Shown here: positions 3,183 through 64,000 of the stretch, piece after piece
How positions within the stretch are numbered: position 1 is the stretch's first letter
Layout: every line of letters starts with the position of its first letter
Assembly: GCA_030998225.1 (NCBI GenBank)
Contig: JAPYXD010000680.1
Coordinates: 10,540,001-10,604,000 of the forward strand
Reading direction: 5' to 3'
Source of the DNA: Diplolepis rosae
Lineage: Eukaryota > Arthropoda > Insecta > Hymenoptera > Diplolepididae
DNA: 64,000 nt
Notes under the pieces: model-generated
The model's input: only the letters and a program-made list of their open reading frames with translations
What the model was told of the DNA's origin: nothing
The model's database searches: none
Made by a program: the position numbers and the translations under genes

Positions 3183-3195
3183 CTTGCGTCAGGCA

Positions 3196-8263: not shown

Positions 8264-8384
8264 CCATAGGATTAGCGATGACCATAACAGTGTAGAGTAA
8301 AGAAAAAATAACAACCTTTATTTTTGTTGATTTTTTTTTTCCGTATCTTCTAGGAACAATAAAAATTAAGTTTTTGTACAGCAT
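8264..8384 (-). CDS. gene C, exon 1 (signal-peptide exon of S1 homolog)
   Basis: The 121-nt frame on the minus strand starts at ATG 8384-8382 and ends at a GTAAGT donor (8263-8258). It encodes 40 residues beginning MLYKNLIFIV and ending in a hydrophobic VVIFSLLYTVMVIANP segment, a likely signal sequence. Length, phase 1 and sequence match exon 1 of gene B (also 121 nt). The codon equivalent to gene A's start is ATA here, so translation would need the upstream ATG. No exon 2 was found to the left, so the gene may be broken by transposons or continue beyond the window. Confidence 0.6.
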
Positions 8385-10155
8385 TCTTCGAAAGCAGCTC
8401 TTTCTTGACCCTCTTCAGACTTATAAAGATTTATCACATAACTAAATTTATAGTTACTTAACTAGTTAATAACTTATAAATAAATATTGAAGATCATAAC
8501 TATAATTTTCAAAGTATTTCGAATATATTCATTCAAAATCTGGATATGGAACAGATATATTTTCAGATTATTGGTCAATTTTCCATGGTCTGAGAATATT
8601 TTAAAGAATAGCTTACAGAAAGTTATAGAATGACTTATTTTCTACCAGAAAGTTTAATACTTTCTGAACACATTCATAAATACAGGCTTTAATAGGTTTA
8701 CAGTAGATTTATATCAGCTATAGTAAATACCTCTACACCGAGGGACTTTTCGTTACAGTAAATCATAAAAATAAATCATATTTTAGTATATTATCATTTC
8801 TAAATGAGGCAAACAGAGTTTACATACCAGAAATTAATATATTGCTTTTCAAGCGGCGAAGTTAATATTTTCGTTTGAATAAATGAAATATTTAATCTAC
8901 TAACCGTTATAAAATCTACGAGAATTTGAAATTCACTGCATCAAAATTGCGAAGCGAAACAAAAACTATGTGAATCTGGAAACCAATATATAAAAAGTCA
9001 CTCACTCCAGCAAATGGTTTGAACTTCAGAAGTGACGAGGCTCCGGATTATGAATTCTTGTGTCTTTCTAACGCGTGCAAAACAAGAGGATAGAGAGAGA
9101 CGTTGGCACTGAGAAGAGGAGAGACTTCAGTGGAAACACACGCACAAATATCATGATCCCTCATTTATTATTCACATATTTAAGTGCGCAATGCTACACT
9201 ATTTATAATCGCAAACGCTTGAATTAAATTTCAGAATCGCTTTTGGGTTCGAACCCTCTATCTCTACCTATATCTACATAACTAAACGCATTCCTAACGC
9301 CTAAAGCCTCTCGGCTATTCTCGCTTGCCATATTCCGAAAGAAATCTCGCTTATAAGTCTCTACTGAGTTTGACAGACTTGGATCGAGTCTACGAAGCTA
9401 ATCGAAAAACATCGGAAGCACTCGGGCAACATTCTGAAACGAATTAATCACGAGACCTCTAAACAGTTTGTACATCTGTCTTTCGTCATAACCTAGTCAC
9501 AACGAAGCACGTGGCAACGAGGAACGAGCACGTTGATTCTGCGGAGTATAGAGTTCCGCGCAGGGGTCGCGGTGAGTAGTGGGAGAAGTGGTGGGGAAAG
9601 AAAAAAAGTAGAGGTGTCGAGCTGCCGATCCGCACGTATTTGCAATACTATTTTTTAATCATTTATATCTTTTAAAATAATGCCGATACAACATTTCTGA
9701 TTGCACCCCTAAAAAGATCAGTTCAAGAACTTATAGAATCAATCATAATCCTAAAATCGATTTTTTGCCTCAAAGATCCCTTTTTTGGATCGCGTCACAT
9801 ATTCATTGTTCGACTTATAAGAATTATTTTTAGAAACCTTAGTAATCCTAATATCATTTTTTCGTACTCTTAATTTTTCGAAAGGAGATTCATAATATTT
9901 GGTATTTGAAATACTAATATTTTTTCTACACGTTTCAAAGACTGTTATGACTATATTGAATTTCAATGCCATAATATAAATAAGAGTAATAAAACCTCGG
10001 CTTTCTCCATTTTAAAACAATTTTATACTAAAATTTCATCCAATTTTATCATTTACTTTAACGAAAAGTCTCTCAGTATACTGATTAAGCATTCGGACCT
10101 AATAGATTGAGAGCTGATTGCACTATAATGAAGTTCATACACGTGATCCTACTAA
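8385..10155. other. intergenic, no gene recognised
   Basis: AT-rich to about 9000. The stretch 9000-9640 is less AT-rich and could be a degraded LTR or promoter region, but I see no defining termini. 9640-10155 is AT-rich with only random short frames. Confidence 0.4.
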
Positions 10156-10163
10156 CGCTTATC

Positions 10164-11007: not shown

Positions 11008-11463
11008 CACTTATCGTCACATTGTTGGGTAGGCTTCGAAATTTTCATCTTTTTGAATGATATCATTTTAGAAATAGAAACGTCACGAATTTCTTAATTT
11101 TCACATGTTTTAATCAGCAACTCACGAAATATTATAATTTATATTGATACCACCAGTTTCAAATTTACATAAGTAATCATTTTAACTTTATAATTTGGGA
11201 ATATTTCAATCGCATGACTTTAAAATCATTGTAAACAAACAATTTTCTTGTTTTCTATTTCGACTTTTTTTTTTGGTATCCTTTTTAGTCACAGTTTTCT
11301 TGGATATGTCAGTCTTTACATCACTTTGCAATAAGAACTGACAAATTCAGAAAAACTGTAATCAAAAAGGAAAGTTAAAGAAAAATAAAATTTGTAAACT
11401 CTAACAGAGGGTACTTTTTATCTTCTGAGGGTAGTATTATAAGTTTGTTAGAGGAAATAGTAT

Positions 11464-14850: not shown

Positions 14851-15066
14851 TTATTGGGTGTTGTCACCAGAATCTGCCTCTGTTGATTTATGTAACTGTA
14901 ACTTCGTTACCATTTCTTGGATATCACTAATTATACCATCGATTCTAGTGAAACGTAAAAATATATCTGTGTCACCCACGCTTCGATCCAGTAGGACTCC
15001 AATCATGTAATGTTTAGTTGTATTTCTTGAATTTATGCTTTGGATCAGAGGACTTCCAACGTCTCC
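14851..15066 (-). CDS. gene B exon 4 (GDVGS box and C-terminus)
   Basis: The acceptor AG (15068-15067) is followed in phase 0 by GDVGSPLIQS, where active proteases have GDSGGP. The exon runs 71 residues to TAA 14853-14851. The core MIGVLLDR...IFLRFTRI matches the final beta strands and helix of an S1 fold. A hydrophilic tail (STEADSGDNTQ) ends it. It has no Cys. Confidence 0.75.
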   Translation of the reverse strand, partial: GDVGSPLIQSINSRNTTKHYMIGVLLDRSVGDTDIFLRFTRIDGIISDIQEMVTKLQLHKSTEADSGDNTQ

Positions 15067-18000: not shown

Positions 18001-21000
18001 TTATAAGAGAGAAAATTAGCACAAATGTTGATTTTGAGCCCGGACTAGATAAAAAAATTTTTGTTGACACGTTCAATAAGTAATTTATTATGCGTGAGCG
18101 GTAGTGTACATTAAGTTTTTTTGTAATTACTGAATTAATTATTTGCAACGATTTTCCAATACTCCGTCCACATAATAGCTTCCTTCTATAATCTCCACTT
18201 GGAAGTGCCTTCTTGCAGATTGCCATGGAACAAATTTCTAAAGTCATACAATGTAAATTATCTGAATATTCTGTATTTTCATTGCACGCATTTTCGCCAT
18301 TGTCTTTCGCTAGAGAGCCCCATCCACATACTTCAGCATAGTATTTATGCACCAGGATATTTAACTTATCTTCAAATAAATTCAGGAATTCTACATGCGT
18401 GTAATCAACTTTATCTGAAAGCTAGAATATAATGATTAAAACTTTGATGACGGGGAATGTTGGCCATATTGGCTCAGCCATCTTTAATCTCGAATTTTCA
18501 ATTGTACATTCTAAAAGAAGCTCACCAAAAATCATTGTTCGATTGAGGCTTCCGATACAAGAAAAATTTAATATTTTTCGCGCTGTGATAGAAAGGCCCC
18601 TTGCCATCAGAAATTGAAGTTTAAAATTTCAATATAATATGTCACAGAAATCATGGAAAGTATAAAGTGTTACACAAAGAAAAATGTAGAACCAAATATG
18701 GGACAGCCATATCATACAGGGTGCGTTTTTTTATCTTGAGACATGGGAATATTTTAAGAAATATGCATCTTACATAAAATTTGATTTTTTTAATAATTAT
18801 TGGTGGGCGGTAAATTCTTGCGGATTCACTTTTCTTAAAAAGTTTTTATGATGGACTTTTTTTCGTACGATACGTATTTTTTAAGATATTTGCATGCTTC
18901 AAGATAAAAAAAACTCACCCTGTATATTCAGTCGTAATATCTAGATATTCAATTGTACTAATTACCAATATATTCAGCTGTAATAGGTTTTAATATCTTA
19001 GATATTACAGCTGAATATATAGGTAGTACAGCTTTATAAATATATAAGATGGTTGTTCTATAGATTTATATCCAAAAAATCATTCTGACTATTCGTTTTT
19101 TTTAATGTATATTTATTGAAACTTTACCAGGTCTAGAAGTATGAAACCGGAATTTTTTTGCAAAAGTTACACGTCTGTTGCATTAAAATGATCAAAAATA
19201 TTTTATTCAAAGTCATCTCCATTGCTATTTACACATTTTTCCCACCTCTCCGGAAGGTGATGAATGCGACGCCAATAAAACCGTTCGTCTTTTAAATCAA
19301 ACCAGTTATCCAGCCATTCTTGTACATTTTCGTATGAAGTGAAGCGTTGTTCAGCGAGAGCGTGGCTCAGTTATGCGGACAGATGGTAATCCGATGGAGC
19401 CAAGTCTGGAGAATAAGCAGCATGCACCAGTATTTCCCAAGTGAAAGTCGTTTCCTTGAACCGTTTCGCTGTGTGTGATGGGGCATTATCGTGAAGAAAA
19501 ATGACTTTGTGTTGCCTTCTTCGATAATCCGGTCGTTTTTCTTGCAATGCTCAATTTAAATTTATCATTTGCTGTTGGTAGCGATTCGTGTTGACAGTTT
19601 CACAAGGTTTTAGCAGGTCATAATAGATAACACCCTCCTGATCACAGTCTCCGAACTTTTTCGGTTGTTTTCCACGATCTTCGTTTCTCACATCAAAATT
19701 ACCACTTTTGAATTTTTTAAACTACTCGAAACACTGTGTTTTGCCAAGAGCATGTTCACCGTAAGCTTCGAAAAGCATTCGATGCGATTCTGCAGCAGTT
19801 TTCTTCAAGTGATAAAAAAAACCAGTGCTGTCCGCAAATCGTAGTTCGTAGGCACAAAACTCGACATGTTGATGCTTGTAGTAAATACAATAGTATATCG
19901 AACTTGGGTTGTTGCCTACTGAAAATCTTTCTCAGCTGCTAGAGAGAGAAGATGGCGCTGCAGAAGCAGTCGTACGGTCCATAAACTGATGGCAAGCACC
20001 ATCAATAGGGAAATTTCGGTTTCATACTTCTAGACCTGGTAGTTTAAAATTTAGACTAAAGTCTAGATTCTACACAATAACCCAGGTGAATATGTGCGAT
20101 TTTTGGCCATGATATCTAGTGAAAGTGGAATTATCAAAATATTGAGATGTTTATGCCCGATCGTCCATTCATTTTATCACGAAAAACAAACTTTGTAATA
20201 CGCCTACCATGATAATTGCAACATCGTTATCCTTTTTTATACGTGGTTCACCAAATGCACTAAAAGTAGTAGGGTAAGCCATTTTTAAAATATTAACTCT
20301 TTGTCCGTTTTTCAAATTCGGGTTTCCAAGTACAGCAGTTGCTTTTTCCTGATGTTTAGTTATTCTTTCTCCAATATACCATGCACATAAAACTGTAGTT
20401 AGTAGGAATTTCTTTTGAAAAAAACTTGAACCACAGATATGGAGTTCGGAAATCTGCAAAGAGACCATATATTTGTAGTCTCCTTCCAATGCGGGTTCTC
20501 CATTAAATATTTTAGTTTCCAGTTCAGGTGAATTGATTTCTGTACGCGTACCTAAAAAGTAATTATTATTTATCGATTATTATCCAAGCGGAAGAGTTGG
20601 CCTTACGCCAACGCTTACAACTGGCATGCTACCACGCCGATTGTAAATGAGGAGTTTCCACCAGTACTGACAGTTAATACCGCGCCAAGCGTCGGCAAGG
20701 TACCACACCGATTGTGAACAAGTATTTATGCTGGTGCCAGTAGTAATTGCCGAGCCAAGCGTCGGCATGGAACCAGGTTGATTTTAAATGAGGAGATATG
20801 CCAGTACTGGCAGTTACTACCACTCCGAGCGTTGGATCCGTCTTCTGTAGAAGACATGTGACTAAATTGGGTTGTTACTGGAGAACTTCATTCATCGATT
20901 ATTGGATGAAGGGACTGGATCCCCCTCAATTAACACCACCGTTTAAAGTATGAGTTGTTAAGGATTTGGCGGACTCGATCATTAGAATAAAACATTTCCG

Positions 21001-27000: not shown

Positions 27001-29102
27001 CAAATATAATAATAACAGGTGAGTAACCAGGACGTTTCATAGCAACAGTTTTACCTTTTGCTTATGAGCATTAAGTTGAGTAACTTAACAAGTTTATAGA
27101 TGCTTGACCCGAGGTTGATGAATGAGTAATCTGAGAATCTTTCTCTTCAATATGTAGAAGAGAATTATGTTTTTCCCGCATTTGTGCCGAGGACCGAGAT
27201 GACATTCGTCAGTCTTGTGATTCTGAAGAAGACAATTGGCGTAAAGTGACAGTTTTCTAGCATTCTCTGATCGTTCCTTTGCTGATAAATGTAGGAACTT
27301 TTGACACTTGTAAATAGCATGATCATTTTGACAATAAACAACACTAGTTTGTTTTATGTTCAAACATGCACCTTTCGTGTAATAGTTTTTTTGTAACATT
27401 GAGGCCTAACTTGCTAGTGTCTAATTTACTGGGTGATTTAGGTGATAATTGTGCTAGACGCGTTTTCTCGAATTGTGATTGACCTTGTAAAAGGGCAATG
27501 AGATCTTTCATAGTCACTAGTTGAATCATCCCATTTTGCACGAGTTGCTTGATTGAGTTTGCTTTTAATAATAAGTATTAGCATTGTATCCCAGCTGTAC
27601 ATTAGTTGATTTCATATAAGTATGCAGCGAACTGAAGATCCTTTTGAAAAAACGGGAAGTTCGAGAAGTGCTTTCGTATGGTCTTCCTTTTACAGTTCAA
27701 AAAACGAATTCTTCCATGGGATTGAAGTAAGGTGTTAAGCTTTTTTCCTTTTCTATGCATAGAAAAAAACTAACTGTTATAGCAAGCTGAGCTCCTCCTA
27801 TTAACAAAGAACGTAATGGAAGGCCGAAAGTGTACGAAGACGCGGAATTGGGAGCATTATGGGATCAAGATTTGTGCCAAACGCAAGAAGAACAATACGA
27901 TGGGTAATACTTCGAATAATAGATAAGGTTCCGTTCTTTCACAATAAATGCCCAATTTTTAATAAAAAACGGCGAAAATTATTTGTATACCTGATATATT
28001 CGTAATTTTTAAATTTCTACGATTCTACCGATACGTCCTTTTATTATAAAAACGTTAAAGATTGGAATGAATGTGAAATTATCTGTAATTCACTGAATTA
28101 GGAAATTTATCAGTACATTCCACTGAAATATTGCGACTGAAATAAATTAGAATTAATTTATTTTTTAAATTGTAAACAGCAGCCAGTAAAGAAAGTCATC
28201 TTAATAGGAAAATGATCAATTTTAAAATCATTTTAATATTATAAGTTGAAATGCTTTCTTAAATTTTAAATAACTCTCGAAATAATCAACATTTTTTAAT
28301 GCTCTTGAACTAATTTTGAAGCTCAATTTCTACAAAATCGAATAAAATCCTTGGAATAAACATTTCATCATTCACAGAATTGAAATTAAGATAATTTAAG
28401 CAATCATCGAAAAACAGGTGGTCCCACAATTCTGACCGGTAGTGTATGTATAATAAGAAGGAAGCGGGTAGAAATAATATCATTACTTGTAATTTTCTGT
28501 ATGCTTGAAAACAACAAAAATATTTCTTAGTTAAAAATATTTGGTGGGCCTAAAAAGGGCCAATTAAACTTCTAGGTAAAATAATTCATGGACGTAAACT
28601 TTTTGAAATCCATTGTTAACATTGGACACGTTTGGGGTTCATTCAATGCGATATTCTCTTGGAATTATAATTATTTATCCGGCTTTCAACACTTAAGCAC
28701 AACAACTTTTTTAGGTTTTTTAACAAATAAAGTAACAGTGTCATACATATTTCACAGTCCGAAGAAGTAAGTTTGATTTTATTGTACTTTTCTTAAGTAC
28801 ATGAACTTGAAGTTTCTGTGAAGAAATTGTTCTCCTTGAACCCACTAAAAGCAGGGCTTTTCAAGCATGGGTTATATTTGTTGATCCTCAGAATGTTACT
28901 GAATTTTCAGAAACGTTTTACTAAAATTGTATATATCTACTCCAAACATAAGATTCCGATATAAACTAACTGTATACTTACACATCGAATTATTGATGGC
29001 CATGATAGCATAGAGTAAGACACAAATAATGATCTTTTTTTTTAACGACTTTTCTTTTCTGTTAGTGAGAGGAATGATTAAAAGCAACTTTTTGTATAGC
29101 AT
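14851..29102 (-). CDS. gene B: non-catalytic S1 serine protease homolog, 4 exons
   Basis: The model joins 29102-28982, 20551-20208, 18421-18131 and 15066-14851 (972 nt, 323 aa) with GT-AG junctions and no stop. Residues 1-40 hold a basic stretch and a hydrophobic core (IIICVLLYAIMAI). K54/I55-FNG matches a protease activation junction. C80 and C96 bracket LLTTVLC, where the catalytic His is Leu95. D150 in NDVAII is the retained Asp. CGWGS follows. The GDSGG box reads GDVGS, so Ser is Val255. Cys191, Cys201 and Cys220 equivalents are absent. It should be a secreted pseudo-protease. There is no clip domain. Introns are transposon-filled. The function is unknown. Confidence 0.7.
15547..16311 (+). 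pseudogene. mariner transposase remnant, frameshifted
   Basis: Only degraded coding survives. The second HTH (VRELAGIVGILKSVVHHILT) and a MDKTW motif are visible, followed by a frame change after ERGN and another near 16140. The remaining C-terminal sequence reads FANNEEVESMIDGYFKELDS and YKEGFEA, then is interrupted at TA (16310-16311) by a MITE. Removing the MITE and one TA restores an in-frame junction to the C-terminal codons at 17042-17098. Confidence 0.75.
16312..17039. mobile_element. MITE family 1, complete copy (728 bp)
   Basis: The ends are CACAGAGAAAAA and TTTTTCTCAGTG, flanked by TA duplications (16310-16311 and 17040-17041). It is non-coding. A second copy lies at 30467-31613. 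The TA target suggests mobilisation by a Tc1/mariner-type transposase. It sits inside a mariner transposase frame, so it is younger than that mariner. Confidence 0.85.
17335..17875. repeat. foldback element with about 210-bp arms
   Basis: The left arm (17335-17555) and right arm (about 17655-17875) are inverted copies rich in CACGCGTGAA and TTCACGTGTGAT-type blocks, with a 100-bp centre. The arms themselves contain short palindromes (TTCACGCGTGAA). It is GC-richer than its surroundings and non-coding. It lies in intron 3 of gene B. Confidence 0.8.
18131..18421 (-). CDS. gene B exon 3 (CGWGS region)
   Basis: The acceptor is TATATTCTAG and the donor is GTAATTAC (18130 onwards); the donor octamer is identical in gene A. 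Phase 0 at both ends, 97 codons. It contains KVDYTHVEF, then YYAEVCGWGS (Cys136 and GWG equivalents), SDNLHC, and DYRRKLLCG (Cys182 equivalent). Extra Cys residues (ENACNEN, EICSMAIC) differ from gene A. Confidence 0.75.
18717..18922. mobile_element. 206-bp MITE, TA target
   Basis: The ends are CAGGGTG(C)GTTTTTTTATCTTGA and its inverse (TCAAGATAAAAAAAACTCACCCTG), flanked by TA (18715-18716 and 18923-18924). It is non-coding. The CAGGGTG terminus resembles that of the DD41D element at 58823, which could be its mobilising family. Confidence 0.75.
18968..19020. repeat. short palindrome in gene B intron 2
   Basis: ATATATTCAGCTGTAATA and its inverse TATTACAGCTGAATATAT are separated by 17 bp. Confidence 0.7.
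19127..20039 (-). mobile_element. mariner (D34D), internally deleted 913-bp copy
   Basis: TIRs CCAGGTCTAGAAGTATGAAA and its inverse are flanked by TA (19125-19126 and 20040-20041). The minus strand encodes first-HTH remnants (MLFEAYGEHALGKTQCFE, NEDRGKQPKKF) fused directly to late catalytic sequence (GVIYYDLLKP). It then gives LHDNAPSHTA and YSPDLAPSDYH, with 34 residues between the two Asp, and the C-terminus LPERWEKCVNSNGDDFE. The first catalytic Asp region is deleted. It lies in gene B intron 2. Confidence 0.85.
20208..20551 (-). CDS. gene B exon 2 (activation junction to catalytic Asp)
   Basis: 344 nt with acceptor TTTTTAG at 20553-20552 and donor GTAGGC (20207 onwards). It encodes PELETKIFNGEPALEGDYKY, MVSLQ, HICGSSFFQKKFLLTTVLC and KKDNDVAIIM. 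The exon has exactly the length and phases of gene A exon 2. Leu occupies the catalytic His position and the Asp of NDVA is kept. Confidence 0.8.
20624..20835. repeat. 71-bp tandem repeat, three copies
   Basis: Units start at 20624, 20695 and 20765 and share GATTGT(A/G)AA and GCCAAGCGTCGGCA blocks. Lengths are 71, 70 and 71 bp. They are diverged from each other. The array lies about 70 bp upstream of gene B exon 2, inside intron 1. Confidence 0.75.
21071..21487 (-). pseudogene. mariner transposase 5' fragment
   Basis: The minus strand reads GKSTIIDWYAKSKRGSTNTD, then AECSGRPKSAVILEDITRV (GRP linker) and KLKLREIADTLKISEGSVF (second HTH). It ends in KKDFLRRYV, the segment just before the first catalytic Asp, with a frame break around FSK. 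It is truncated at both ends and no TIR was identified. Confidence 0.8.
22130..23284 (+). mobile_element. Tc1-family element (DD34E), one main lesion
   Basis: It encodes a Tc1 transposase in two overlapping frames. The right end (to about 23284) reads GAGCGAGTCCTTG inward and also exists as a detached fragment at 49808-49985. The left terminus is not clearly defined. It lies in gene B intron 1. Confidence 0.8.
22201..23125 (+). pseudogene. Tc1 transposase, frameshifted near 22790
   Basis: Frame 1 (22201-22818) gives the paired-type DNA-binding domain (SYTAAAKYIKKSKSFVKKW, DDSPERGKSRATT) and the first catalytic Asp in VIFSDETSFW. It is followed by HVWGFFSQRGFG. Frame 2 resumes at about 22780 with NLNAQKMVQIYECEL, then ILQEDNDPKHRS (second Asp) and WPSQSPDANPIENVW, whose Glu lies 34 residues later. 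A small deletion near 22790 breaks the frame; otherwise the coding looks well preserved, so insertion may be fairly recent. Confidence 0.85.
23471..23803 (-). CDS. unrecognised 110-aa reading frame
   Basis: Minus strand frame ending KNKICDYLKTKY and a stop. The C-terminal part has four Cys and looks protein-like (ASDITVAMVIDAYKEHGFDG). TTTCTCAG just before codon MKLYNELKSC could be a splice acceptor, making this a terminal exon of a host gene, but no other exon was linked. I considered a lysozyme-like tail (DIT...HGF) but the spacing does not fit. It could be chance or part of an unknown transposon. Confidence 0.25.
   Translation of the reverse strand: MTTVVLDLATSHLVCSCAHRCTVPHMVTLVPKKCFSDMKLYNELKSCTSVQKRKKMIASDITVAMVIDAYKEHGFDGLSRLFGVDKNGKICVTNNRKVKNKICDYLKTKY
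24271..24981. repeat. inverted-repeat element, about 710 bp
   Basis: The ends are GGTGTGCCCACTCCCAT and its inverse ATGGGAGTGGGCACACC. Inner copies of GCTACGTCCCCTAG occur in the same orientation at about 24327 and 24893. It is non-coding and abuts a mariner fragment on the right. Confidence 0.6.
24990..25275 (-). pseudogene. mariner transposase 3' fragment
   Basis: The minus strand reads LLDRLIDEIIKKRPHLKKKK, then ITIHHRTLYRQKT, where the usual HHDNA motif is lost. PPYSLDLVLSDYYLLPNLKR and CGRGFESNEEVEW follow. It is truncated on both sides; the inverted-repeat element at 24271-24981 lies where the C-terminus would continue. Confidence 0.75.
25304..25972 (+). mobile_element. mariner deletion derivative, copy 1 (3' truncated)
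   Basis: The left TIR is CTACTGTGGGCAAAAACTAA. Coding remnants include KAENVLMTWNAPNDHQ and RRLTIRDLADTVGIS in different frames, then the deletion junction (KDILG joined to RQLVVF). A frame change follows, to WFLHHDNAPSYTALVLRDHF. It stops at PYSPDF (about 25966) without a right TIR. The junction is the same as in the copy at 45372-46302. Confidence 0.8.
26396..27541 (-). mobile_element. BEL/Pao-like gag fragment
   Basis: The minus-strand frames carry the Cys/His cluster typical of Pao gag: CQNDHAIYKCQKFLHLSAKE, then KLSLYANCLLQNHKTDECHL and HKCG. Upstream are FEKTRLAQLSPKSPSKLDTS and related sequence. Downstream (26755-26396) is a linker with three 14-residue repeats. Protease, RT and LTRs are not seen here. 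It is frameshifted and partial, and lies in gene B intron 1. Confidence 0.7.
26488..26613. repeat. 42-bp in-frame minisatellite, three units
   Basis: Three 42-bp units beginning TAACCTGCCA encode, on the minus strand, 14-residue repeats of the form QVT(F/I/V)GQS(D/N)G(A/V)D(E/G)(S/I)W. The reading frame is kept across all three units. Confidence 0.8.
27815..27996 (+). repeat. mariner 3' remnant with TIR
   Basis: GRPKVYEDAELGALWDQD-type coding (compare GRPKTFEDAELEALLDED in the mariner at 47751) runs straight into a terminal sequence resembling that of the 359-bp element at 39173-39531 in inverse orientation. Confidence 0.65.
27997..28981. other. gene B intron 1, non-coding
   Basis: AT-rich, no feature except the block at 28834-28858 shared with intron 1 of gene C. 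Confidence 0.4.
28982..29102 (-). CDS. gene B exon 1 (signal sequence)
   Basis: ATG at 29102-29100 opens 40 codons (MLYKKLLLIIPLTN...) ending in phase 1 at donor GTAAGT (28981 onwards). The codon aligned with gene A's start is AAA here. This start was chosen because the matching gene C exon has the same ATG in the same frame and the same 121-nt length. The long basic N-region before the hydrophobic core is unusual for a signal peptide. Confidence 0.6.
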
Positions 29103-30130: not shown

Positions 30131-30180
30131 ATTTTTTATTTATTTTTTATTTTATTTTTTATTTTTTTTTTATTATTATT
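30131..30180. repeat. low-complexity TTTTTATTT run
   Basis: About 50 bp made only of T and A in T(n)A units. Confidence 0.8.
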
Positions 30181-37698: not shown

Positions 37699-37950
37699 TT
37701 AAAGCTTTATACGTTTATTCTGTTCCTCCGTTGCATGTTCGGTTTTGATAACAAAACTTGCATCTTCTGTTATATACGTTCCTATCTTCCTAAGTATTTT
37801 CTCAACATCTTCAAGTGCAAAATAGATTCTAATGAAACGAAGCAATACATCACGTTCATTATCATGTCGATCAAGCGTGACTCCAACGAGATAGTTCACA
37901 CTTGTATCATTTTCTCTGATGGCCTTGATCACAGGACTGCCAATGTCTCC
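37699..37950 (-). CDS. gene A exon 4 (GDIGS box and C-terminus)
   Basis: The acceptor is TTACATAG. The exon encodes 83 residues, GDIGSPVIKAIRENDTS..., with the core YLVGVTLDR and LLRFIRIYFALEDVEKILRK (final strand and C-terminal helix). A charged tail ends at the stop 37701-37699. No Cys. Confidence 0.8.
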   Translation of the reverse strand, partial: GDIGSPVIKAIRENDTSVNYLVGVTLDRHDNERDVLLRFIRIYFALEDVEKILRKIGTYITEDASFVIKTEHATEEQNKRIKL

Positions 37951-43900: not shown

Positions 43901-46900
43901 TAATGTTGATTCATATTGATTGAGTTTTTTGTGAAAACTAGAGTAGTTATATTTCATTTATATATTTTCAGTTGTATTTGTAGCGATGTACTATTGGGTT
44001 GTCCCAGAAGTAATTGCCGATTTCACATATAGATGTCTTTGGCCATTTTTTGGGATGGCTTCTTTCAATGTCATGATTTTTCTCTTCTGGCATTTGTTAG
44101 CTGTCACTCTTAGCTTGTTTTACAAACAAATTTCGCGTAATTTCGTTTACAGTTGTTGTTTGACATCAACGTTAAGATGGAGTATAAAAACAAACATTTT
44201 CGTCATATTTTGCTTTTTTATTTCCGTAAAGGAAAGAACGCCGCACAGGTTGCTAAAAAGTTACGTGATATGTATGGTGAGGAAGCCTTAAAAGACAGGC
44301 AGTGTCGAAATTGGTTTGATAAATTCCGTTCTGGCGATTTTTCACTCAAAGATGAGAAACGTTCAGGTCGGCCAAATGAAGTTGATGATGACCAAATCAA
44401 AGCCATAATCGAATCGGATTGTCATGTAACTGTGCAAGAGATTAAAGAAATGTTAAAAATACCAAAATCAACAATCGACCATCATATACAACGTCTTGGA
44501 CTAGTTAAAAAACTTGATATTTTTATTCGACATGACTTGAAAGAAATTCATTTAACAAAACGCAGCAATGCTTATGATTTGCATCTTAAACGCAATAGAT
44601 TATATCCTTTTTTTGAACGAATTATCACTGGTGATGAAAAATGGATTGTTTACAATAACGTCGATCGAAAAGGATCATGGTCCAAGCATGATAAACCACC
44701 ACAAACAACATCGAAAGCTGAATTGCATCAAAAAGAGATTATGCTGTCTGTTTGGTGGAATTGGAAAGGTGTGGTATTTTTTGAGCTGCTTCCAAGGAAC
44801 CAAACGATTAATTCGAATGTCTGCTATCCTCAAATTAACAAATTGGACGTAGCAGTCAAAGAAAAACAGCCAGAATTGGTCAATCGCAAAGGTGTAATTT
44901 TTCACCATGGAAACGCTACACTACATACATCTTTAGCCACTCGCAAAAAATTATCAAGGCTTGGTTGGGAAGTGATGTTACATTCATTATATAACCCTGA
45001 CCTTGAACCATCAGATTACTATTTATTTTGATCCTTGCAGAAAAAATGTGTTTAATTTGTATGAAAAAATCGGCAATAACTTCTGGGACAAACCTACACA
45101 AAAAAATATTGTTGTAATTATGAATACTTAAGAGTAGGCAGACCTTCCTCAGCACATTATATTCAATTACAAAAATTATAAAATTGGTGTCTCATCGAAC
45201 ATAGATGTAAGTTTATGCACAAAATAATGTCAATCGAGACATTTTTTCAAAAAATTCATTGGTTGCAAAGTTCAGAAGTGGACAGCTTGAACAAATTAGG
45301 AGAACACAAACTAAAAAACCTTTCTCCATATGAATTTTTAAGGAAAGGACATTTACATTCAGTAAATTATATACTACTGTGGGCAAAAACTAAGGTGAAT
45401 TTTTAATTTAAACTTCGCGGGTTAACCGTTTCGGGTAAACTCTTTCATTTTTATGTTGGTCCTACTGTTACTGACATCTGTGCCAAATTTCATGTCAATG
45501 TCATCATTTGTTACAAAGTTACGCTTGTGTTTTCTAAACGACTAAAAGTGATTTTTTCGATTTTTACAATGTCTGAATTTATTGAGCAAAAAAGTGCCAT
45601 TAAATTTTGTTTGTGGAATGAAATTTCAGTTGCGGAAACTTTCAGAATATTCCAGAAGGCTTTCGGTGATTTGGGCATGTCGCAAAAAAATTTTTATAAG
45701 TGGTACAAAGACTTCAAAGAAGGTAGAGAACGTGTTGATGACTTGGAACGCCCCGGACGACCATCAACATCACCTGACGAGCAAAACGTCAATCACATCA
45801 AAGAATTAGTGCACAAAAATCGTCGAATAACAATTAGAGACCTTGCTGACACTATTGGCACTTCAAGAAGATCACTCAACACCGTTTCAAAAGATATTTT
45901 GGGCAGACAACTCGTGGTTTTTGCATCACGATAATGCGCCATCTCACACTGCACTCGTTCTTCGTGACCATTTCGCCAAAAACTCAATGCATATCGTTCC
46001 ACAAACACCATATTTGCCTGATTTGGCTCCGTGTGACTTCTGGCTATTCCCCAGACTCAAACGACCACTCCGAGGACACCGTTTTGACACGATTGAAGAG
46101 ATACGAGCCGAATCGAAGAGGGCGTTGAAGGCAATTCCGGAAATCGAATTTAACAAGTGTTTCGGCGATTGGAAAAAACGTTAGCTTGAGTGCATTATAT
46201 CGGGAGGGAATTACTTTGAAGGGGATGAAATTGATTTGGATAAATAAATAAAACATTTTCATTTGATAACAAAATTCACCTTAGTTTTTGCTCACAGTAG
46301 TATGACTACCATGGAAGAAGCAAATGATTTAGAAACATTCTATGAAAATATTCATACACAATAATGACGGAGTAAAATTACAATTAAGCCTATACTTCTT
46401 CCTTCCTGACAATTCGTATTCAAATATTGAATCTTTTTTAATATAATATACTTATAGTGTCGTATGAATTAAAGGTTTCCCAACAACCTACCATGACAAT
46501 TCCGACATCGTAATCATGTCTCGGACATTTTGCACCATAAATATCGCAAACAGAAGGGTACGCAACTTTTAAAATATTAATTCTTTGTCCTTTTTGCAAA
46601 TTCGAATTTCCAATTACAGCAGTAGCTCTTTGATTGTTTTTTTCTATACCATTTCCAACAAACCATGCACATAAGCTTGTTGTCATTAAGAAACCCTTCT
46701 GAAACATGGCTGAACTACAAATATGATAATTGTTTAATTGTAATGATGCCAAGTATTTGTGTTCATCTTCTTTTGGGGGTTTCCCATTGAATATTTTACT
46801 TTGCAGTTGAGGTAAATTGACTTTTGCATGCGTACCTTTAAAATAATAATTATTATTAATGGATTAACAAAAATATGCTCATATCAAATATAAATTATGG

Positions 46901-49900: not shown

Positions 49901-51926
49901 GACTACGGCGCTACTATCTAATAGATAGTCCAGTCCCCATCGTTGTCCAGAATGGCCTGGCACTTTTTCGGCATGCTTTCCACTAATCTAAATTATTAAT
50001 CGAAACGATTCGATTAATAATGCTCAACTTCCATATCGTTGTATCATTAGAACACAGCCCCTTCAAAAATTTTGAGTTGAACAAAATTTTTCTGAATAGG
50101 CTTTTTAATTTTCATTACTAGTTATTAAACATATTCATAAAGGGTTTTCCAATAGGGACATAACAATTTCGTATCTTTATATGAACGCACCCTTAAACTT
50201 TTCTAGTGAACTGTCAATGTCAAAACGTTAGCTAAAGTCCACGAACCAGCAACGTTTGGAAATGATTAAAAAAAACTACCGAAATTCTGAGTCGGTGGTC
50301 GCAACTTTAAAAGCGCTTACTCCAATTTTCGGCCGTAATAATCTTCCCACCCGACAGGCTGTGCGTGCTATAGTGGATAAATTCAAGACCAAATTTACAC
50401 TATTGGATGTTCCGGTGTTAAAAAGACGTCGTATTGCTCGAAGCGAAGGAATAATCGCAGCCGTATGTGCATCGATTCAAAATGAGCCAAATCAGTTGAT
50501 TCCACGTCGTTCTCAAGAATTGGGCGTCGATCAAACGACACTGTGGCGTATTATGCAAAAAGATCTTGGCCTACATGCTTTCTAGATTAAATTGACTCAA
50601 GAACTAAAGCCACTTGATCATTTGAAACGCCGAAACTTCTCCAATTGGGCTCTGGCAAAGCTTGAAGAAAATGAAGAATTTCATCGAAAAATCATCTTCA
50701 GCGATGAAGCTCATTTCTGGCTCAATGGCTTTGTTAATAAGCAAAATATGCGTTATTGGTCAGCAACAAACCCAAATGTGCTTCTTGAGACACCGTTGCA
50801 TCCGCAAAAAGTGTCTTTTTGGTGCGGCTTTCATGCCGGAGGTGTGATTGGGCCGTATTTTTTCGTGGATGAAAACGACCGTCATGTTACTGTCAATGGA
50901 GAGCGCTATCGTGCTATGTTGGAAGATTATTTGTGGCCAGAATTGGATGAACTTGACATCAACGATATGTGGTTTCAACAAGACGGTGCCAGTAGCCTCA
51001 CAGCACGCGTCACAATCAATTTATTGAAAGGCAAATTCGGTGAACCTGTTATCTCGAGAAATGGTCCGGTCGAATGGCCGCCTCTTTCATGCGATCTAAC
51101 GCCATTGGATTTTTTTGTATGGGGCCATATCAAGTCACTGGTCTATGTCAAGGAGCCAGAAACTTTACACGACCTGAAACACAGCATCCAACGCGAAATT
51201 GCCAACGTTCCGGTCGAAATGTGTTGCACTACACCCACAATAAATTTGAACTCAATATCTTAAATATTTCTGTGCTTTTTTCATAGATAAAATTGTTATG
51301 TTCCTATTGGAAAACCCTTTATAACAAGTAATTAAAATTTGTTAAATTTTTATTAAAAAATCCAACTGACTAACTTTTTTGTTTGATGGACTATTGTCTC
51401 TGAATGCATCACATGAGACTTAAAAAGTAATTATTTCGACTATGACGATATAAAATTAAAATACAATTATACAATGTATGAATATTGTGTAATGTCTGAT
51501 TAAAAATTGCAAACTACATCCTGTGCCGGTCGAATCTTAAAAATCTGACATTTGATCGGACGCGCTTCGGATGTTGAATATTCGACATTCGACGGGCGGC
51601 TGATCGAATGTTGAAAATCCGACATCCGAAGAAGCGCGCTTCGGATGTCGAATATTCGGCATTCGACGGGCGGCTGATCGAATGTCGAAAATCCGACATC
51701 CGAAGCGCGCTTCTTCGAATCTTTCTCCACACCTCTAAACGGCACCTCATACGAAATTCGTAAGAGATCTTTTTCGGTGTAGAACTGTATTTAGGGAAAA
51801 TTTTAACAAATGCTACTTCAAATTCTCATAAGTCTATTACAAGCTAGTAAAAAATACAGTGTATTTACCTATAGGATCAAGGATGACTATAATAGCGTAG
51901 AGTAAAGAAGGAACAATAGTCTTCAT
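37699..51926 (-). CDS. gene A: non-catalytic S1 serine protease homolog, 4 exons
   Basis: The model joins 51926-51869, 46835-46492, 39850-39563 and 37950-37699 (942 nt, 313 aa), all GT-AG, phases 1-0-0, no stop. Residues 1-19 form a clear signal peptide (MKTIVPSLLYAIIVILDPI). K33/I34-FNG is the activation-like junction. C59 and C75 bracket FLMTTSLC, where catalytic His is Leu74. D129 (YDVGIV) is kept. CGWGS is at 166-170 and C203/C218 match Cys168/Cys182. GDIGS (231-235) puts Ile at the Ser position. No Cys191, Cys201 or Cys220 equivalent. Likely a secreted binding or decoy protein. Target and tissue cannot be inferred. Confidence 0.75.
38025..39170. other. gene A intron 3, non-coding
   Basis: AT-rich, nothing recognised. 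Confidence 0.4.
39173..39531. mobile_element. 359-bp mariner-derived MITE
   Basis: The ends are TCAGGTGCACAAATAAGTTT and the inverse form AAACTTATTTGTACACCTGA. The left interior keeps antisense transposase codons like the mariner remnant at 27815. It sits 31 bp downstream of exon 3 in intron 3 of gene A, very close to the donor. Confidence 0.8.
39563..39850 (-). CDS. gene A exon 3 (CGWGS region)
   Basis: Acceptor TGTTCTAG, donor GTAATTAC, 96 codons, phase 0 at both ends. It reads VSNKVDYTRVNILPL, HKYEATICGWGSVTND, AEYSELLHCMPVQL, DEFCRPVIRLGDYKRKLLCG. An extra Cys in LLHCMP lies near the Cys157 position, although the usual partner Cys22 is absent. Confidence 0.8.
40141..41508. mobile_element. 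MITE family 2, second copy, split by a rosa-like mariner
   Basis: The ends are CATGGAGAAAAAGTCTAATT and TTTCTCCATG, flanked by TA (40139-40140 and 41509-41510). It is inverted relative to the copy at 30987. Its homology is interrupted at TA by the mariner at 40165-40971; subtracting this leaves about 560 bp. Confidence 0.85.
40165..40971 (+). mobile_element. rosa-like (DD41D) mariner, internally deleted copy 1
   Basis: TIRs AAGGGTTTTCCAATAGGGAC and inverse, with TA flanks. A frame from 40279 encodes the N-terminal half (MVKSTNQQRLDMIKNYYRNS, VVATLRALTPIFGRNN, IPRRSQELGIDQTTLWRIMQ), followed by a small frame break near 40675 (DHLIAETSP). An internal deletion joins IGKSSSA to NVPVEMCARVVENW, removing the whole catalytic core. 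It ends MTNIEFHS and a stop. It shows the intact N- and C-termini missing from copy 3. Confidence 0.85.
41753..43450. mobile_element. TIR element split by a rosa-like mariner
   Basis: The ends are CACACAGAAAAAAAAGTCTTA and inverse AAGACTTTTTTTTCTGTGG, and further inverted blocks lie inside (CTTCTTTTT, GGCTAGTTGTAC near 41900 against GTACGAGTATATTATCCGGC near 43320). Excluding the mariner at 42420-43160 it is about 950 bp. Non-coding. Confidence 0.55.
42420..43160 (-). mobile_element. rosa-like mariner, deleted copy 2 (divergent subfamily)
   Basis: TIRs AAGGGTTTCCCAATAAGGG and inverse, with TA flanks. The minus strand encodes MSSFTLPQRLEIVQLFYQNS, then VGVQRAYRAKYGRHSAPS, a frameshift near 42803, SVPRRSQELGLSRMTTWRIL, and DEAHFWL with the first catalytic Asp. 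The rest is deleted. TIR and protein differ from copies 1 and 3, so this is a sister subfamily. Confidence 0.8.
43452..43550. repeat. about 100-bp hairpin
   Basis: AGCAGTAAAGTTGAACTTCA...CGGATGCAG pairs with CTGCATCCTCGAAAAGGTCAACTTTACTGTT. It directly abuts the TIR element on its left. Confidence 0.65.
43991..45097 (+). mobile_element. mariner (D34D), C-terminal deletion
   Basis: TIRs TTGGGTTGTCCCAGAAGTAA and inverse TTACTT-like end (AATAACTTCTGGGACAAACC). It carries one long transposase frame. It lies in gene A intron 2. Confidence 0.85.
44177..45031 (+). pseudogene. mariner transposase, second Asp lost, C-terminus deleted
   Basis: The frame is open from ATG 44177 (MEYKNKHFRHILLFYFRKGK) for 284 codons. 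First HTH, DEKRSGRPNEVDDDQ (GRP linker), EIKEMLKIPKSTIDHHI (second HTH), IITGDEKWIVYNNVDR (first Asp), then IFHHGNATLHTS, where the second Asp has become Gly, and YNPDLEPSDYYLF (third Asp). A stop follows at once and the next bases go straight to the TIR, so roughly 60 C-terminal residues are deleted. The frame is otherwise uninterrupted. Confidence 0.9.
45372..46302 (+). mobile_element. mariner deletion derivative, copy 2 (both TIRs)
   Basis: TIRs CTACTGTGGGCAAAAACTAA and inverse with TA at 46301-46302. The 5' frame from 45570 reads MSEFIEQKSAIKFCLWNEIS, YKWYKDFKEGRERVDD, RPGRPSTSPDEQ, RRITIRDLADTIGTSRRSLN. The deletion junction KDILG/RQLVVF shifts the frame to WFLHHDNAPSHTALVLRDHF and LPDLAPCDFWLFPRL. 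The first catalytic Asp is gone. Its junction is identical to that at 25304. Confidence 0.85.
46492..46835 (-). CDS. gene A exon 2 (activation junction to catalytic Asp)
   Basis: 344 nt, acceptor TTTAAAG at 46837-46836 and donor GTAGGT (46491 onwards). It encodes LPQLQSKIFNGKPPKEDEHK, YLASLQL, YHICSSAMFQKGFLMTTSLC and RHDYDVGIVM. Two additional Cys (SVCDIYGAKC) precede the Asp motif and are absent from gene B. Confidence 0.8.
46850..47748. other. gene A intron 1, non-coding part
   Basis: AT-rich, nothing recognised. A frame at 47160-47396 has no motif. Confidence 0.4.
47751..48970 (+). mobile_element. mariner (D34D), full-length but decayed
   Basis: The left TIR GGTGCGCAACTAAGTCCCC follows TA (47749-47750). 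The right TIR is not clear and the element seems to fade near 48970. Coding spans most of the family length, with several stops. Confidence 0.8.
47921..48936 (+). pseudogene. mariner transposase with multiple stops
   Basis: From ATG 47921 (MSDFVTNNHHLRELLIFFFH): early stops around EAH/EF, GRPKTFEDAELEALLDED (GRP linker), QEELALVLGVTRQPISKRWH (second HTH), a frame change near 48360, VLGDEKWIHYSNPKRRKSCG (first Asp), VILQHDNAQPHVAKP (second Asp), YSPDIAPSDYYLLRSMAHGL (third Asp, 34 residues on) and a C-terminus ending FVGNDGQYFE. At least four stops and two frameshifts. Confidence 0.85.
49020..49318 (+). repeat. left arm of TIR element or repeat with GAATGTCGAA motifs
   Basis: This arm and 51485-51760 are inverted copies: CGAATTTCGTATG outer end, GATCGAATGTCGAAT interior, GTAGTTTGCAATTTTTAATC inner end. 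Together they flank three other transposon pieces. Confidence 0.65.
49319..49805. mobile_element. non-autonomous derivative of the DD41D long-TIR family
   Basis: The left part (CAGGGTAAGGCACATAAAG, then AGGTCAACTCCAC) matches the long TIR at 58823-59250, and the right part (GATATGATCAATAGTTTGAG) matches its inverse at 61960. No transposase is present. Confidence 0.7.
49808..49985 (-). repeat. detached 3' end of a Tc1 element
   Basis: Inverted match to the right end of the Tc1 at 23110-23284 (AGAGCGAGTCCTCGATTTTT, then AGTCCAGTCCCCATCGTTGT). Confidence 0.8.
50138..51321 (+). mobile_element. rosa-like (DD41D) mariner, copy 3 with catalytic core
   Basis: TIRs AAGGGTTTTCCAATAGGGAC and inverse, flanked by TA. 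It is the most complete member of its family here. Confidence 0.85.
50229..51263 (+). pseudogene. rosa-like transposase: start deleted, one stop
   Basis: Compared with copy 1, about 20 nt including the start codon are missing before STNQQRL. TAG at 50583-50585 replaces a Lys codon (HAF/IKLTQ). Otherwise the frame is open: IIFSDEAHFWLNGFVNKQNM (first Asp), YFFVDENDRHVTVNGERYRA, WFQQDGASSLTARV (second Asp), DLTPLDFFVWGHIKS. The third Asp (PLD) is 41 residues after the second, the DD41D signature of the rosa group. The C-terminus is shortened by a deletion after NVPVEMC. Confidence 0.85.
51485..51760 (-). repeat. right arm (inverted) of the 49020 repeat
   Basis: Inverted relative of 49020-49318, expanded by an internal 74-bp tandem duplication. 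Confidence 0.65.
51562..51709. repeat. 74-bp tandem duplication
   Basis: Two units start at 51562 and 51636 with GCGCTTCGGATGT(C/T)GAATAT. Each unit is itself nearly palindromic (CGCTTCGGATGTCG against CGACATCCGAAG). Confidence 0.8.
51869..51926 (-). CDS. gene A exon 1 (signal peptide)
   Basis: ATG 51926-51924 opens 19 codons, MKTIVPSLLYAIIVILDPI, plus one base before donor GTAAAT (51868 onwards). This is a short, textbook signal peptide. In genes B and C the aligned codon is not ATG. The sequence homologous to their N-terminal extension is present upstream here but out of frame and without their ATG. Confidence 0.75.
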
Positions 51927-58460: not shown

Positions 58461-58462
58461 GA

Positions 58463-59156: not shown

Positions 59157-59246
59157 CACGTCAAGGTCAACTCCACTTTTTTAAATCAAACCATGTATTT
59201 TTTTTCGATCACATTATTATCGACTTCAAGACAAATTCAGCGATCA

Positions 59247-59609: not shown

Positions 59610-59823
59610 CAACAACACAAGGTCATTCTAGTCACGCAAAGTATGAAAATAGTCGAAAAATCGAAACATATCGGAATAATCACTTTCAAAGGATCCACTG
59701 AGTATAATGCGGCTGCTATCTTAGCTTTTGCTGCACTAAATCCACATGCGAGCAGCAGGCAATTAAAAAAAGAGTGGAATTAGTCATCGATCTGTATTAA
59801 GAATCTTACATCAACACAAGTTC

Positions 59824-60941: not shown

Positions 60942-62013
60942 TTCCATCCGTATCGTATGTCATTACATCAGGATTTGTACGGCAATGATTTCCTAAAACG
61001 CGTTAATTTCTGTAATTGGATTCGTAGAAAAATGTGCACAGACATCTCATTTTTGAGTCATGTGCTTTTTTCTGATGAAGCTAACTTCGCAAATACGGGA
61101 AATGTGAATAGGCAGAATATGCATTATTGGGCAAATGAGAACTCTCGATGGATGAGAACTGTACCATTTCAACATCCATGGTCCGTTAATTGTTGGTGCG
61201 GCATTGTCGGCGATCACGTCATTGATCCATATTTTTTTGAAGGTCGCTTGACTGGGCAAGTTTACGCAAACTTGTTGCAAAACGTACTGCCTCAATTACT
61301 GGAAGACGTGCCCTAGCATGTTCGCATGAATATGTAGATGCAACACGACGGTGCACCACCCCATTATGCTCTGTGTTCACGACAAGTGATGAATGAGATT
61401 TTTGACGAAAAGTGGATAGGACGAGGCGGCCCTGTAGCTTGGCCACCTCGTTCGCCAGATCTAACATCACCAGATTACTTTTTATGGGGTTTTGTCAAAG
61501 AACGCGTAATGGCGGTAGCACCTATCACGCCTGACGATATGAAAGAAAGAATACGCCAAACATGTACCGAAATTACGCCACAAATGTTGGCTGAAATTAG
61601 ACGGTGTTTTCATCAGCGAATTAACAACTGCTTACAAGTCGAGGGTCATCACTTCAAGCATCTTCTGTAGGTAGACCCAAACCAAGGTTAGTGGATCCTT
61701 TGAAAGTGATTATTCCGGTATGTTTTGATTTTTCGACTATTTTCATATTTTGCGTGACTAGAATGACCTTGTGTTGTAGGTCGCTGAATTTGTCTTAAAA
61801 TCGTTAATAATGTCATCGAAAAAAAATACATGGTTTCATTTAAAAAAGTGGAGTTGACCTTGACGTAGCTTCAGCGCCTCCGCCGATAAAAAAATAGGCT
61901 GGTCGAGTATGACAGCCTTCTCAAACACTGAAACTTTTGTCTGAAACATTTTTGGATATGATCAATAGTTTGAGTGCTATCGCTCTGTAACACTTTATGT
62001 GGCTGACCCTGTA

Positions 62014-63520
62014 TAGTTTAAGACTTTCCCTTATACGTATAAATATATAGATAATCGAAAATATTTTCTTAAATGAAATAAAAATTATCAAAAAAATGCC
62101 CAACCGTATGTGACTAACCCCTTAAGGCCATACACGGAAAAAATTTGTCGCTTAAAAAGTCATCGACTTTGTATAATAATCGTGGATAGGTTAGAAAGTC
62201 GACTAAATATTATGAACCTCCTTATTGAAGAATATGATAGATAATCGTCTGAAATATGTACAAAAGTTGAGAAAAATTTTAAAGTGAACTATATAAAGTC
62301 TCCTTGATAATCGCTGAAAATATAAAAAGTAAATTCGAAAGTTTAAGTGACAGTCGCAGAAAATTTAAAACACCGTGGGTTTTATTTTCTCTAAACCAGG
62401 CATCGAAAGTCTAAGTGACAGTCGAAGAAAATGTTGAACAGTGCAAAAAGAAAAATATTATTTTCTGTGATATGATCCTGCACTTATAGTTAATTATTTT
62501 TCACTTTCACATTACCTATATAATCCTAACATGAACTTAATATTTACATTTAACACTGTACATTACAGAAACGCAATTTTTATAAACACTTCGCAGCACC
62601 GAGAATTGAACGCTCGCACGCACGTACGCATCCTAACCTAATTCTAATCGCACGCCTTAACCCGCATAGCCGATACATTGTCGTGGAGACTTGTGTAAAA
62701 TATTTGGATCACATTCAGAGTTTGAAGGCAAAACTAAAATAATAGATAAATTTCAAATTTGACATAATACACTTTATTCCGAAAAATGTGCAATTAACAA
62801 AATTTTTAAAATGCCTTACATTTTCAAAAAGTTTCAACTTAAACAATTCTTTTTATATTTCTAAAACACCTTTGTTTATCACAATGAAAAAATATAAAAT
62901 GGTTGTTGGCGAAATGAGTGATTGATAAATAATTAAATTTATTTTATTTTTGAGGTTAATTCTTGTTTATTAATAAAAATTGTGTCGGAAAAAAATTCCC
63001 TATAATTTTTTTTTGCTTTAAAAATTGAAAAAAATTCTGTTCTAAAGATATCAACAATTTGAAGCTTTTAACTTTAGATACTTTCTAAAATATAATTTTA
63101 TGATCTTTGAATTACCATAAAAAGCATTCCATTTATATCATGATGTAAATATAGATATTTTCACAGTTGATAAAGGGAAGTTAAAGAATTTCTCTAGATT
63201 ACTCATATACATGATAAAAATATGCAAAGATACTCAGAAATTTATTTTCAGCGCCTAGCAATATAATCTTAGGGGAAAAACCATTATATTACCGTATAAT
63301 TACTATAAAGTAAATCATTTTTATGGGTAAAAAAATACAACAATTTCGTAACGAAGAAAATTATAATTTATTCAGAACATTCGTAAATTCTATTTTTAAA
63401 CTCTGTTTATATGAACCAAACTCTATTCTAAAATAAAACTCTGAACCAAAGAGTTTTTTACTTCTAAAATCTAAATCGAAGTAAATGAAGAATGTATAAA
63501 CTAAACAACATTCTTTAAAT
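62014..63520. other. no gene recognised
   Basis: 62139 begins ACGGAAAAAATTTGTCG like a MITE end without a clear partner. A 30-bp direct repeat (AGT(T/C)TAAGTGACAGTCG) occurs at about 62340 and 62408. The rest is AT-rich. Confidence 0.4.
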
Positions 63521-64000
63521 TTATATCCAAATCTTTGGTATGTAATAATAATCATCATTTAATTTGTTTCTGCTGGTAATTATTATCCCAGAAGCAATAT
63601 CTTCCTGGTTTAAAAGACAAAATTTGTAACAACTTTCGTCAAAAATTTTGTATGTCTGTAAGTTCTCGATAAAAAAACAGTCACACAATTTTTTGCAAAT
63701 AATTTTAAATTCGCGATTTATAACAACAATAATGTGTACGAGGAAAAATTCTGAACCATTTGCGGAAGAAGTCGTTATGACACTATTGCGTTTGATTTTG
63801 TAACCCAGATATTCTATCCAGCTGGTGACACAAATACTGTCTTTTGCTAATGGAAGAATTAAGCTTACAAATTGTTCAATATCTGTTAAATTGTGGGTAT
63901 TAATAGTTTTTGTAGGACCATTTGTGAAAGGATCATAAGTACCTTTTTCAGTTAAGAATCTATAATTCAACATTAGTTGATGTTTAATTGCAATTGTTCG
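63521..64000 (-). CDS. gene D: diverged S1-like protein, C-terminal part, runs off the window
   Basis: The minus-strand frame is open from the window edge to a stop at 63523-63521 (ATG at 63973 is probably internal). Order of motifs fits the second half of an S1 domain: FVSLILPLAKDSICVTSWIE (LP...C..GWG region), FLVHIIVVINREF, a Cys-rich stretch, ESCYKFC, then QEDIASGIIIT where active enzymes have GDSGGPL. Catalytic Ser is therefore probably absent. It shares orientation with genes A, B and C. The assignment is inference from motif order; similarity is weak. Confidence 0.4.
   Translation of the reverse strand, partial: RTIAIKHQLMLNYRFLTEKGTYDPFTNGPTKTINTHNLTDIEQFVSLILPLAKDSICVTSWIEYLGYKIKRNSVITTSSANGSEFFLVHIIVVINREFKIICKKLCDCFFIENLQTYKIFDESCYKFCLLNQEDIASGIIITSRNKLNDDYYYIPKIWI

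What the first reader, a model, noticed from the sequence alone, without database searches (positions are those of the whole stretch)
8264..64000. Head-to-tail cluster of pseudo-protease (S1 homolog) genes
Genes A, B, C and probably D lie on the same strand in the same order of exons. A and B have identical exon-intron phases, an identical 344-nt exon 2 and identical GTAATTAC donors at exon 3, yet the proteins are strongly diverged. Their frames are open across 313 and 323 codons although the introns are full of dead transposons, which suggests selection on the proteins. A clip-less, non-catalytic S1 family amplified in tandem could be a venom, salivary or immune effector family.
Basis: partly seen in the sequence, partly recalled or inferred. 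Interest (0 to 1): 0.75.

Follow-up and report, generated by a model that had tools for sequence, protein, structure and literature searches.

The report
Tandem secreted pseudo-protease genes, probably insect
Two neighbouring genes encode secreted relatives of trypsin that have lost two of the three residues needed to cut proteins, look maintained by selection yet change fast, and are most likely a small family of binding proteins of a kind common in insects.

Summary
The core observation holds. Two four-exon genes lie head to tail on the minus strand: A (51926-37702, 313 codons) and B (29102-14854, 323 codons). Exon 2 is 344 nt in both, intron phases are 1-0-0 in both, and exon 3 ends on GTAATTAC in both. 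The proteins are 43% identical. B is a clear S1 (trypsin-fold) protein; A is one through B and weaker direct matches. His57 is Leu and Ser195 is Val or Ile; Asp102, the Lys|Ile activation site and Asp194 remain. There is no clip domain.

Of the further genes, D is only an exon 1 (8384-8264). I found no gene C; the open frame at 63524-64000 is not detectably S1. The one other S1 piece is a truncated exon-3 relic at 31729-31652.

Selection: no stops and one internal 3-nt indel at about 0.49 substitutions per site, with replacements far more conservative than neutral. But dN/dS is high (NG86 0.75; 0.55-1.01), so constraint is weak or part of the protein diversifies.

No relative turned up in the collections searched. 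The source genome could not be searched and the species is unidentified. Best reading: clip-less secreted serine protease homologs, a known kind; a venom, salivary or immune role is untested.

The parts
51869..51926 (-). gene A exon 1 (leader exon, start at 51926; ends phase 1)
   Evidence: tblastn with D exon 1 E 3e-5; nhmmer 8.9e-22, but A was in that profile; donor GTAAATAC
46492..46835 (-). gene A exon 2, 344 nt, N-terminal half of S1 fold, K|IFNG activation site, His57 position Leu, Asp102 kept
   Evidence: tblastn A to B E 9e-41; borders
39563..39850 (-). gene A exon 3, 288 nt, phase 0, GTAATTAC donor
   Evidence: blastp A to B 45% id over 85 aa, E 1.8e-27
37702..37950 (-). gene A exon 4, 249 nt, GDIGSP (Ser195 to Ile), stop TAA
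   Evidence: blastp A to B 36% id over 64 aa, E 1e-16; acceptor region 36 bp at 92% id to B
28982..29102 (-). gene B exon 1, 121 nt, hydrophobic leader preceded by an extension of about 20 residues
   Evidence: B-D blastn 71% over 184 bp E 2e-20
20208..20551 (-). gene B exon 2, 344 nt
   Evidence: Pfam Trypsin E 2.6e-6 for the ORF that holds this exon alone
18131..18421 (-). gene B exon 3, 291 nt, GTAATTAC donor
   Evidence: Trypsin E 2.1e-11 together with exon 2
14854..15066 (-). gene B exon 4, 213 nt, GDVGSP (Ser195 to Val), stop TAA
   Evidence: Trypsin 55-276 E 3.5e-15 for whole B
8264..8384 (-). gene D exon 1 only, 121 nt, same length and start as B exon 1; the rest was not detected in the window
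   Evidence: 20 of 40 residues identical to B
31652..31729 (-). relic: first ~26 codons of an exon 3 with its acceptor; no further exons of this copy detected
   Evidence: hmmsearch E 3.3e-6, nhmmer E 3.8e-5; 55 of 79 alignment columns identical to B, 50 of 81 to A

Best explanation
A and B are paralogous secreted, clip-less serine protease homologs (S1A pseudo-proteases) made by tandem duplication, with a third copy starting near the window edge (D) and one dead fragment between A and B. Shown by sequence: S1 homology, a hydrophobic leader exon, loss of His57 and Ser195, retention of the trypsin-type activation site and of Asp194, and maintenance of open frame with conservative replacements. 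Inferred: the proteins are secreted, are probably cut at Lys|Ile by a trypsin-like protease, switch to the ordered form through the Ile16-Asp194 salt bridge, and then act by binding (a decoy or co-factor for a protease, substrate or surface) rather than by catalysis. High dN/dS, highest in exon 4, fits a binding surface that changes fast in each copy.
For: S1 homology. Catalytic positions read by me from the alignments of B to Der p 3 and enteropeptidase and A to B: TTSLC/TTVLC for TAAHC, DVGI/DVAI for DIAL, GDIGSP/GDVGSP for GDSGGP; K|IFNG in both. Gene structure. In 301 aligned codons no stop and one internal 3-nt indel. Neutral simulation at the observed difference: mean 11.2 stops, minimum 3, in 1000 runs; evolving A neutrally, frames stayed open in 0.7% of 2000 runs at 0.1 substitutions per site and in 0 of 2000 at 0.2. 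Mean BLOSUM62 of replacements -0.03 against -0.81 +/- 0.12 neutral, 0 of 1000 as high. Exon 4 dN/dS 1.18 (0.67-2.17). Each protein has an N-glycosylation sequon in exon 4, offset by one residue (placed on the alignment).
Against: No transcript or protein evidence. No relative in any collection searched, so nothing shows that the family exists outside this window. dN/dS bootstrap reaches 1.01; codon position 1 differs more than position 3 (128, 86, 111 of 301). A alone does not reach Pfam Trypsin at E 10. B and D need an upstream start, because the Met of A is not conserved there. The cleavage and switch steps are inference. The exon 2 structure model was too poor to use (mean pLDDT 39.8).
Confidence: 0.72

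Rival explanations
1. A and B are recently dead copies of a formerly functional S1 pseudo-protease family, still open because too little time has passed.
For: High dN/dS, a relic exon, transposase ORFs in the introns, no relatives found.
Against: No lesion in 313 or 323 codons or at 12 splice borders; replacements stay conservative.
Confidence: 0.12
2. A special case of the best explanation: a rapidly diversifying effector used against another organism or in mating (venom, saliva, seminal fluid or immunity), in which duplication and amino-acid change are the point.
For: Tandem copies, 43% identity, exon 4 dN/dS estimate above 1. Precedents: Cotesia venom SPH Vn50 (PMC4553444, abstract seen) and Drosophila seminal SPHs CG9997, aquarius and intrepid (PMC3894160, passages seen).
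Against: Vn50 needs its clip domain, absent here; the exon 4 interval includes 1; no expression data; species unknown.
Confidence: 0.3
3. Another special case of the best explanation: gut-expressed clip-less SPHs of the ordinary digestive set.
For: In Tenebrio 102 of 125 SPHs have no regulatory domain, and of that group (with 84 SPs) the majority are expressed only in feeding stages; Val and Ile at 195 occur in 9 and 7 SPHs (PMC11172050, abstract and section 2.6).
Against: No expression data here; Tenebrio is a beetle, and His57 to Leu is not listed in the section read.
Confidence: 0.3
4. Four tandem genes lie in the window, with C at the right edge.
For: The ORF 63524-64000 runs 159 codons in a stretch of 28% GC, long by my own unrun estimate, and I could align S1-like words to it by eye.
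Against: 500 shuffles each: 54% and 48% score as high against A and B (31% and 86% with cheaper gaps); no Pfam Trypsin hit, only a below-cut-off DUF4898 match; no S1 chain among solved structures; its C-terminal 47 residues belong to another protein.
Confidence: 0.04

Closest known systems
Insect clip-less serine protease homologs (SPHs), S1A subfamily
   Same: S1 domain, leader, short propeptide, Lys|Ile activation site, loss of triad residues
   Different: His57 to Leu with Ser195 to Val/Ile; none of the 12 of 13 honey bee SPH rows in the passages I saw (PMC1761132) pairs TTxLC with GD[IV]GSP; no ortholog found here
Azurocidin (heparin-binding protein), a vertebrate S1 pseudo-protease
   Same: Best solved match of A exons 2-3 and among the first seven of the A-B profile; non-catalytic S1 protein (its role as in PMC1761132, passage seen)
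   Different: Vertebrate protein; weak similarity only (E 4.5e-4); no sign of common function
Clip-domain SPHs such as Vn50
   Same: Non-catalytic S1 domain, extracellular
   Different: Both the clip and the protease-like domain are needed in Vn50 (PMC4553444 abstract); no clip domain in A or B

Membership tests
S1 family (PF00089 fold) | significant match to the Trypsin profile | tested here: met
   B E 3.5e-15 over 55-276, above cut-off; A fails alone at E 10 but is 43% identical to B and its exons 2-3 hit a solved S1 chain at 4.5e-4
Serine protease homolog (non-catalytic S1) | one or more of His57, Asp102, Ser195 replaced | tested here: met
   His57 Leu, Ser195 Ile (A) or Val (B), Asp102 kept
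Serine protease homolog (non-catalytic S1) | no hydrolytic activity | not testable with these tools
   needs protein
Clip-domain SPH (Vn50 type) | six-Cys clip domain before the S1 domain | tested here: not met
   0 (A) and 2 (B, residues 27 and 41, the first in the leader) Cys before IFNG; only 33 and 54 residues there
Venom, salivary or seminal effector | expression in the gland and presence in the secretion | not testable with these tools

The most novel reading that the evidence does not exclude
A lineage-specific, tandemly duplicating family of secreted pseudo-proteases that has kept the zymogen switch (Lys15|Ile16 and Asp194) without catalysis and whose C-terminal exon evolves adaptively: a protease-triggered binding effector shaped by conflict.
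Probability: 0.15. Interest if true: 0.5.

Novelty: new member of a known kind. Interest (0 to 1): 0.33.

Why it matters
Clip-less SPHs are numerous in insects and their functional role is described as still poorly understood (PMC11172050, section 2.6). A cluster whose paralogs keep the activation switch but not catalysis, and change fast, would be a place to test whether activation without catalysis is a general mode of SPH action. If the source is a hymenopteran (not shown), a local SPH expansion would add to a group in which the honey bee lacks the large SP/SPH clusters common in Drosophila and Anopheles (PMC1761132, passages seen).

Tried and rejected
Rejected as S1 copies: ORF 63524-64000; the exon-2-like piece at 53168-53016 (E 0.0096; repeated sequence); the exon-4-like piece at 8216-7986 (E 0.31-0.39; no DNA match at E 5; a B-D shared intronic block lies beyond it).

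Led nowhere: protein searches with B (0 of 1030 candidates) and with the A-B alignment (0 of 4578); contig scans for A-B in viral and bacterial collections, for the edge ORF in viral contigs, for the LINE RT in bacterial contigs and for the mariner in viral contigs; NCBIfam (0 families for 2 of 2 members); AlphaFold of exon 2 from two sequences (mean pLDDT 39.8), so I made no fold search. Two paper searches (ant SPHs; TE content) returned 0 papers at four of five terms; those were seen as listings, and four papers were opened. I considered folding the spliced proteins and did not: the tool admits only sequences that the window gives letter for letter.

Full report
What was checked. Open frames of at least 100 codons were listed and the minus strand read for S1-like exons. 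First exons were found by a scan for leader exons with a phase-1 donor and by tblastn with the leader at 8330-8262. All six introns are GT-AG, phases 1, 0, 0 in both genes. The spliced frame 0 has no stop; the other frames have 18 and 28 (A) and 19 and 27 (B). An ATTAAA lies 16 bases after the stop of A and 84 after that of B (not tested against chance).

Other copies. Profiles of each exon were run on 2981 stop-free segments of at least 14 residues in six frames and on the DNA. Above the inclusion threshold, exon 1 finds three places: A, B and D (8384-8264). Exon 3 finds A, B and a truncated piece at 31729-31652. Exon 4 finds only A and B. Exon 2 finds A, B and a 24-residue piece at 53.1 kb (E 0.0096) that I reject: the same DNA recurs at 55.7-55.9 kb and the DNA profile does not find it. 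D therefore has one detected exon in the window; its other exons are beyond base 1, lost or too diverged. The exon-3 piece lies after the last exon of A and before the first exon of B, so I read it as a relic of another copy; its likeness stops after about 26 codons.

Gene C is not found. The edge ORF 63524-64000 can be aligned to S1 words by eye, but 54% and 48% of 500 shuffles do as well against A and B (31% and 86% with cheaper gaps). It hits neither Pfam Trypsin (one below-cut-off DUF4898 match, E 0.0086) nor an S1 chain. Its last 47 residues are 87% identical to the end of P0001, a 228-aa unannotated protein without Pfam domains. It is probably another gene or a mobile element.

What the proteins are. 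B matches Pfam Trypsin over 55-276 (E 3.5e-15); A matches no Pfam family at E 10, but is 43% identical to B, and its exons 2-3 match solved S1 chains, azurocidin best (E 4.5e-4). The best solved matches of B are Der p 3 and enteropeptidase (E 1.5e-6 and 2e-6). In those alignments His57 is Leu, Ser195 is Val (B) or Ile (A), Asp102 is kept, the Lys|Ile-Phe-Asn-Gly activation site is kept and Asp194 is kept. Cys191 and Cys220 of chymotrypsin have no counterpart that I can see, so the substrate pocket is probably lost (my reading; chymotrypsin numbering and the Ile16-Asp194 switch are recalled). There are 33 (A) and 54 (B) residues before the activation point, with 0 and 2 cysteines, so no clip domain.

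Start codons. A starts at a Met just before the hydrophobic core. At the same place D has ATA and B has AAA; both have an upstream ATG that opens an extension of about 20 residues, 121 nt of exon 1 in each. Between B and D the first 60 nt differ at 7, 3 and 9 of 20 sites at codon positions 1, 2 and 3, weak support for coding. The true start of B and D is open.

Selection. In 301 aligned codons 129 residues are identical. Differences by codon position are 128, 86 and 111 (unequal, chi-square P 0.0016). dN and dS: NG86 0.46 and 0.62, ratio 0.75 (300 bootstraps: 0.55-1.01, 3.3% at or above 1); LWL85 0.44 and 0.50; YN00 0.44 and 1.02; ML 0.49 and 0.70. By exon, NG86 bootstrap medians: exon 2 0.69 (0.37-1.15), exon 3 0.57 (0.26-0.99), exon 4 1.18 (0.67-2.17). 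So constraint is weak by dN/dS. Yet the frames are not drifting: under neutral change at the observed difference 1000 simulations give a mean of 11.2 stops and never fewer than 3, while none is seen; replacements score -0.03 on BLOSUM62 against -0.81 +/- 0.12 (0 of 1000 as high); identity is 42.9% against 36.2 +/- 2.8%. The one internal indel is three bases. The simulation uses uniform mutation from A alone and leaves codons turned to stops out of the match count, so it is a guide and not an exact test. Both results together say: proteins kept, changing fast.

Outside evidence. Nothing related was found in 5.8 billion proteins or in the viral and bacterial contig collections. These are described as, or appear to be, mainly microbial, so this says little about insects. 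The source assembly could not be searched. The setting fits an insect: mariner-type transposases, a LINE with endonuclease and RT domains at the left edge, AT-rich DNA. My guess of Hymenoptera rests on recall of such elements and was not tested; scans meant to name a host found nothing.

Comparison. Clip-less SPHs are a common insect class: 102 of 125 Tenebrio SPHs have no regulatory domain, with Val or Ile at 195 in 9 and 7 (PMC11172050, abstract and section 2.6). The honey bee has 13 SPHs and few clusters (PMC1761132, passages). SPHs serve in parasitoid venom (Vn50, PMC4553444, abstract) and in the Drosophila sex-peptide network (PMC3894160, passages). A and B belong to this kind; which role they serve cannot be told from sequence. 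The venom-or-seminal and gut readings are special cases of the best explanation, so their odds overlap with it.

Noticed in passing
63524-64000 (-): 159 codons open to the window edge; last 47 residues 87% identical to P0001, an unannotated 228-aa protein on a 3096-bp ENA contig. Possibly a mobile-element protein.
   Followed up: partly
35188-36342 (+): Mariner-type transposase in two consecutive ORFs of one frame separated by one stop; Transposase_1 E 6.9e-24 in the second, the only one scanned.
   Followed up: partly
26486-26648, inside ORF 26396-26773 (-): 42-bp tandem repeat, about 3-4 copies, a multiple of three, giving a 14-residue repeat in an open frame within intron 1 of B.
   Followed up: no
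51561-51720: 74-bp (2 x 37) tandem repeat, 95% match over 51561-51705, just inside intron 1 of A.
   Followed up: no
46024-45365 and 25963-25289: A 0.67-kb stretch, 89% identical, in intron 2 of A and intron 1 of B, overlapping a transposase ORF in A.
   Followed up: no
28876-28835 and 7734-7693 (-): 42 bp at 81% identity shared by intron 1 of B and the region after exon 1 of D: possible conserved intronic element or TE piece.
   Followed up: no
8216-7986 (-): Frame about 50 bp after D exon 1 with faint exon-4 likeness (E 0.31-0.39); no DNA match; probably chance.
   Followed up: partly
1-3222: GC-rich (56% in the first 2 kb) LINE with endonuclease and RT domains.
   Followed up: partly
upstream of exon 1 of A, B and D: A GATAA motif lies within 100 bases upstream of each start; no test against chance.
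   Followed up: no
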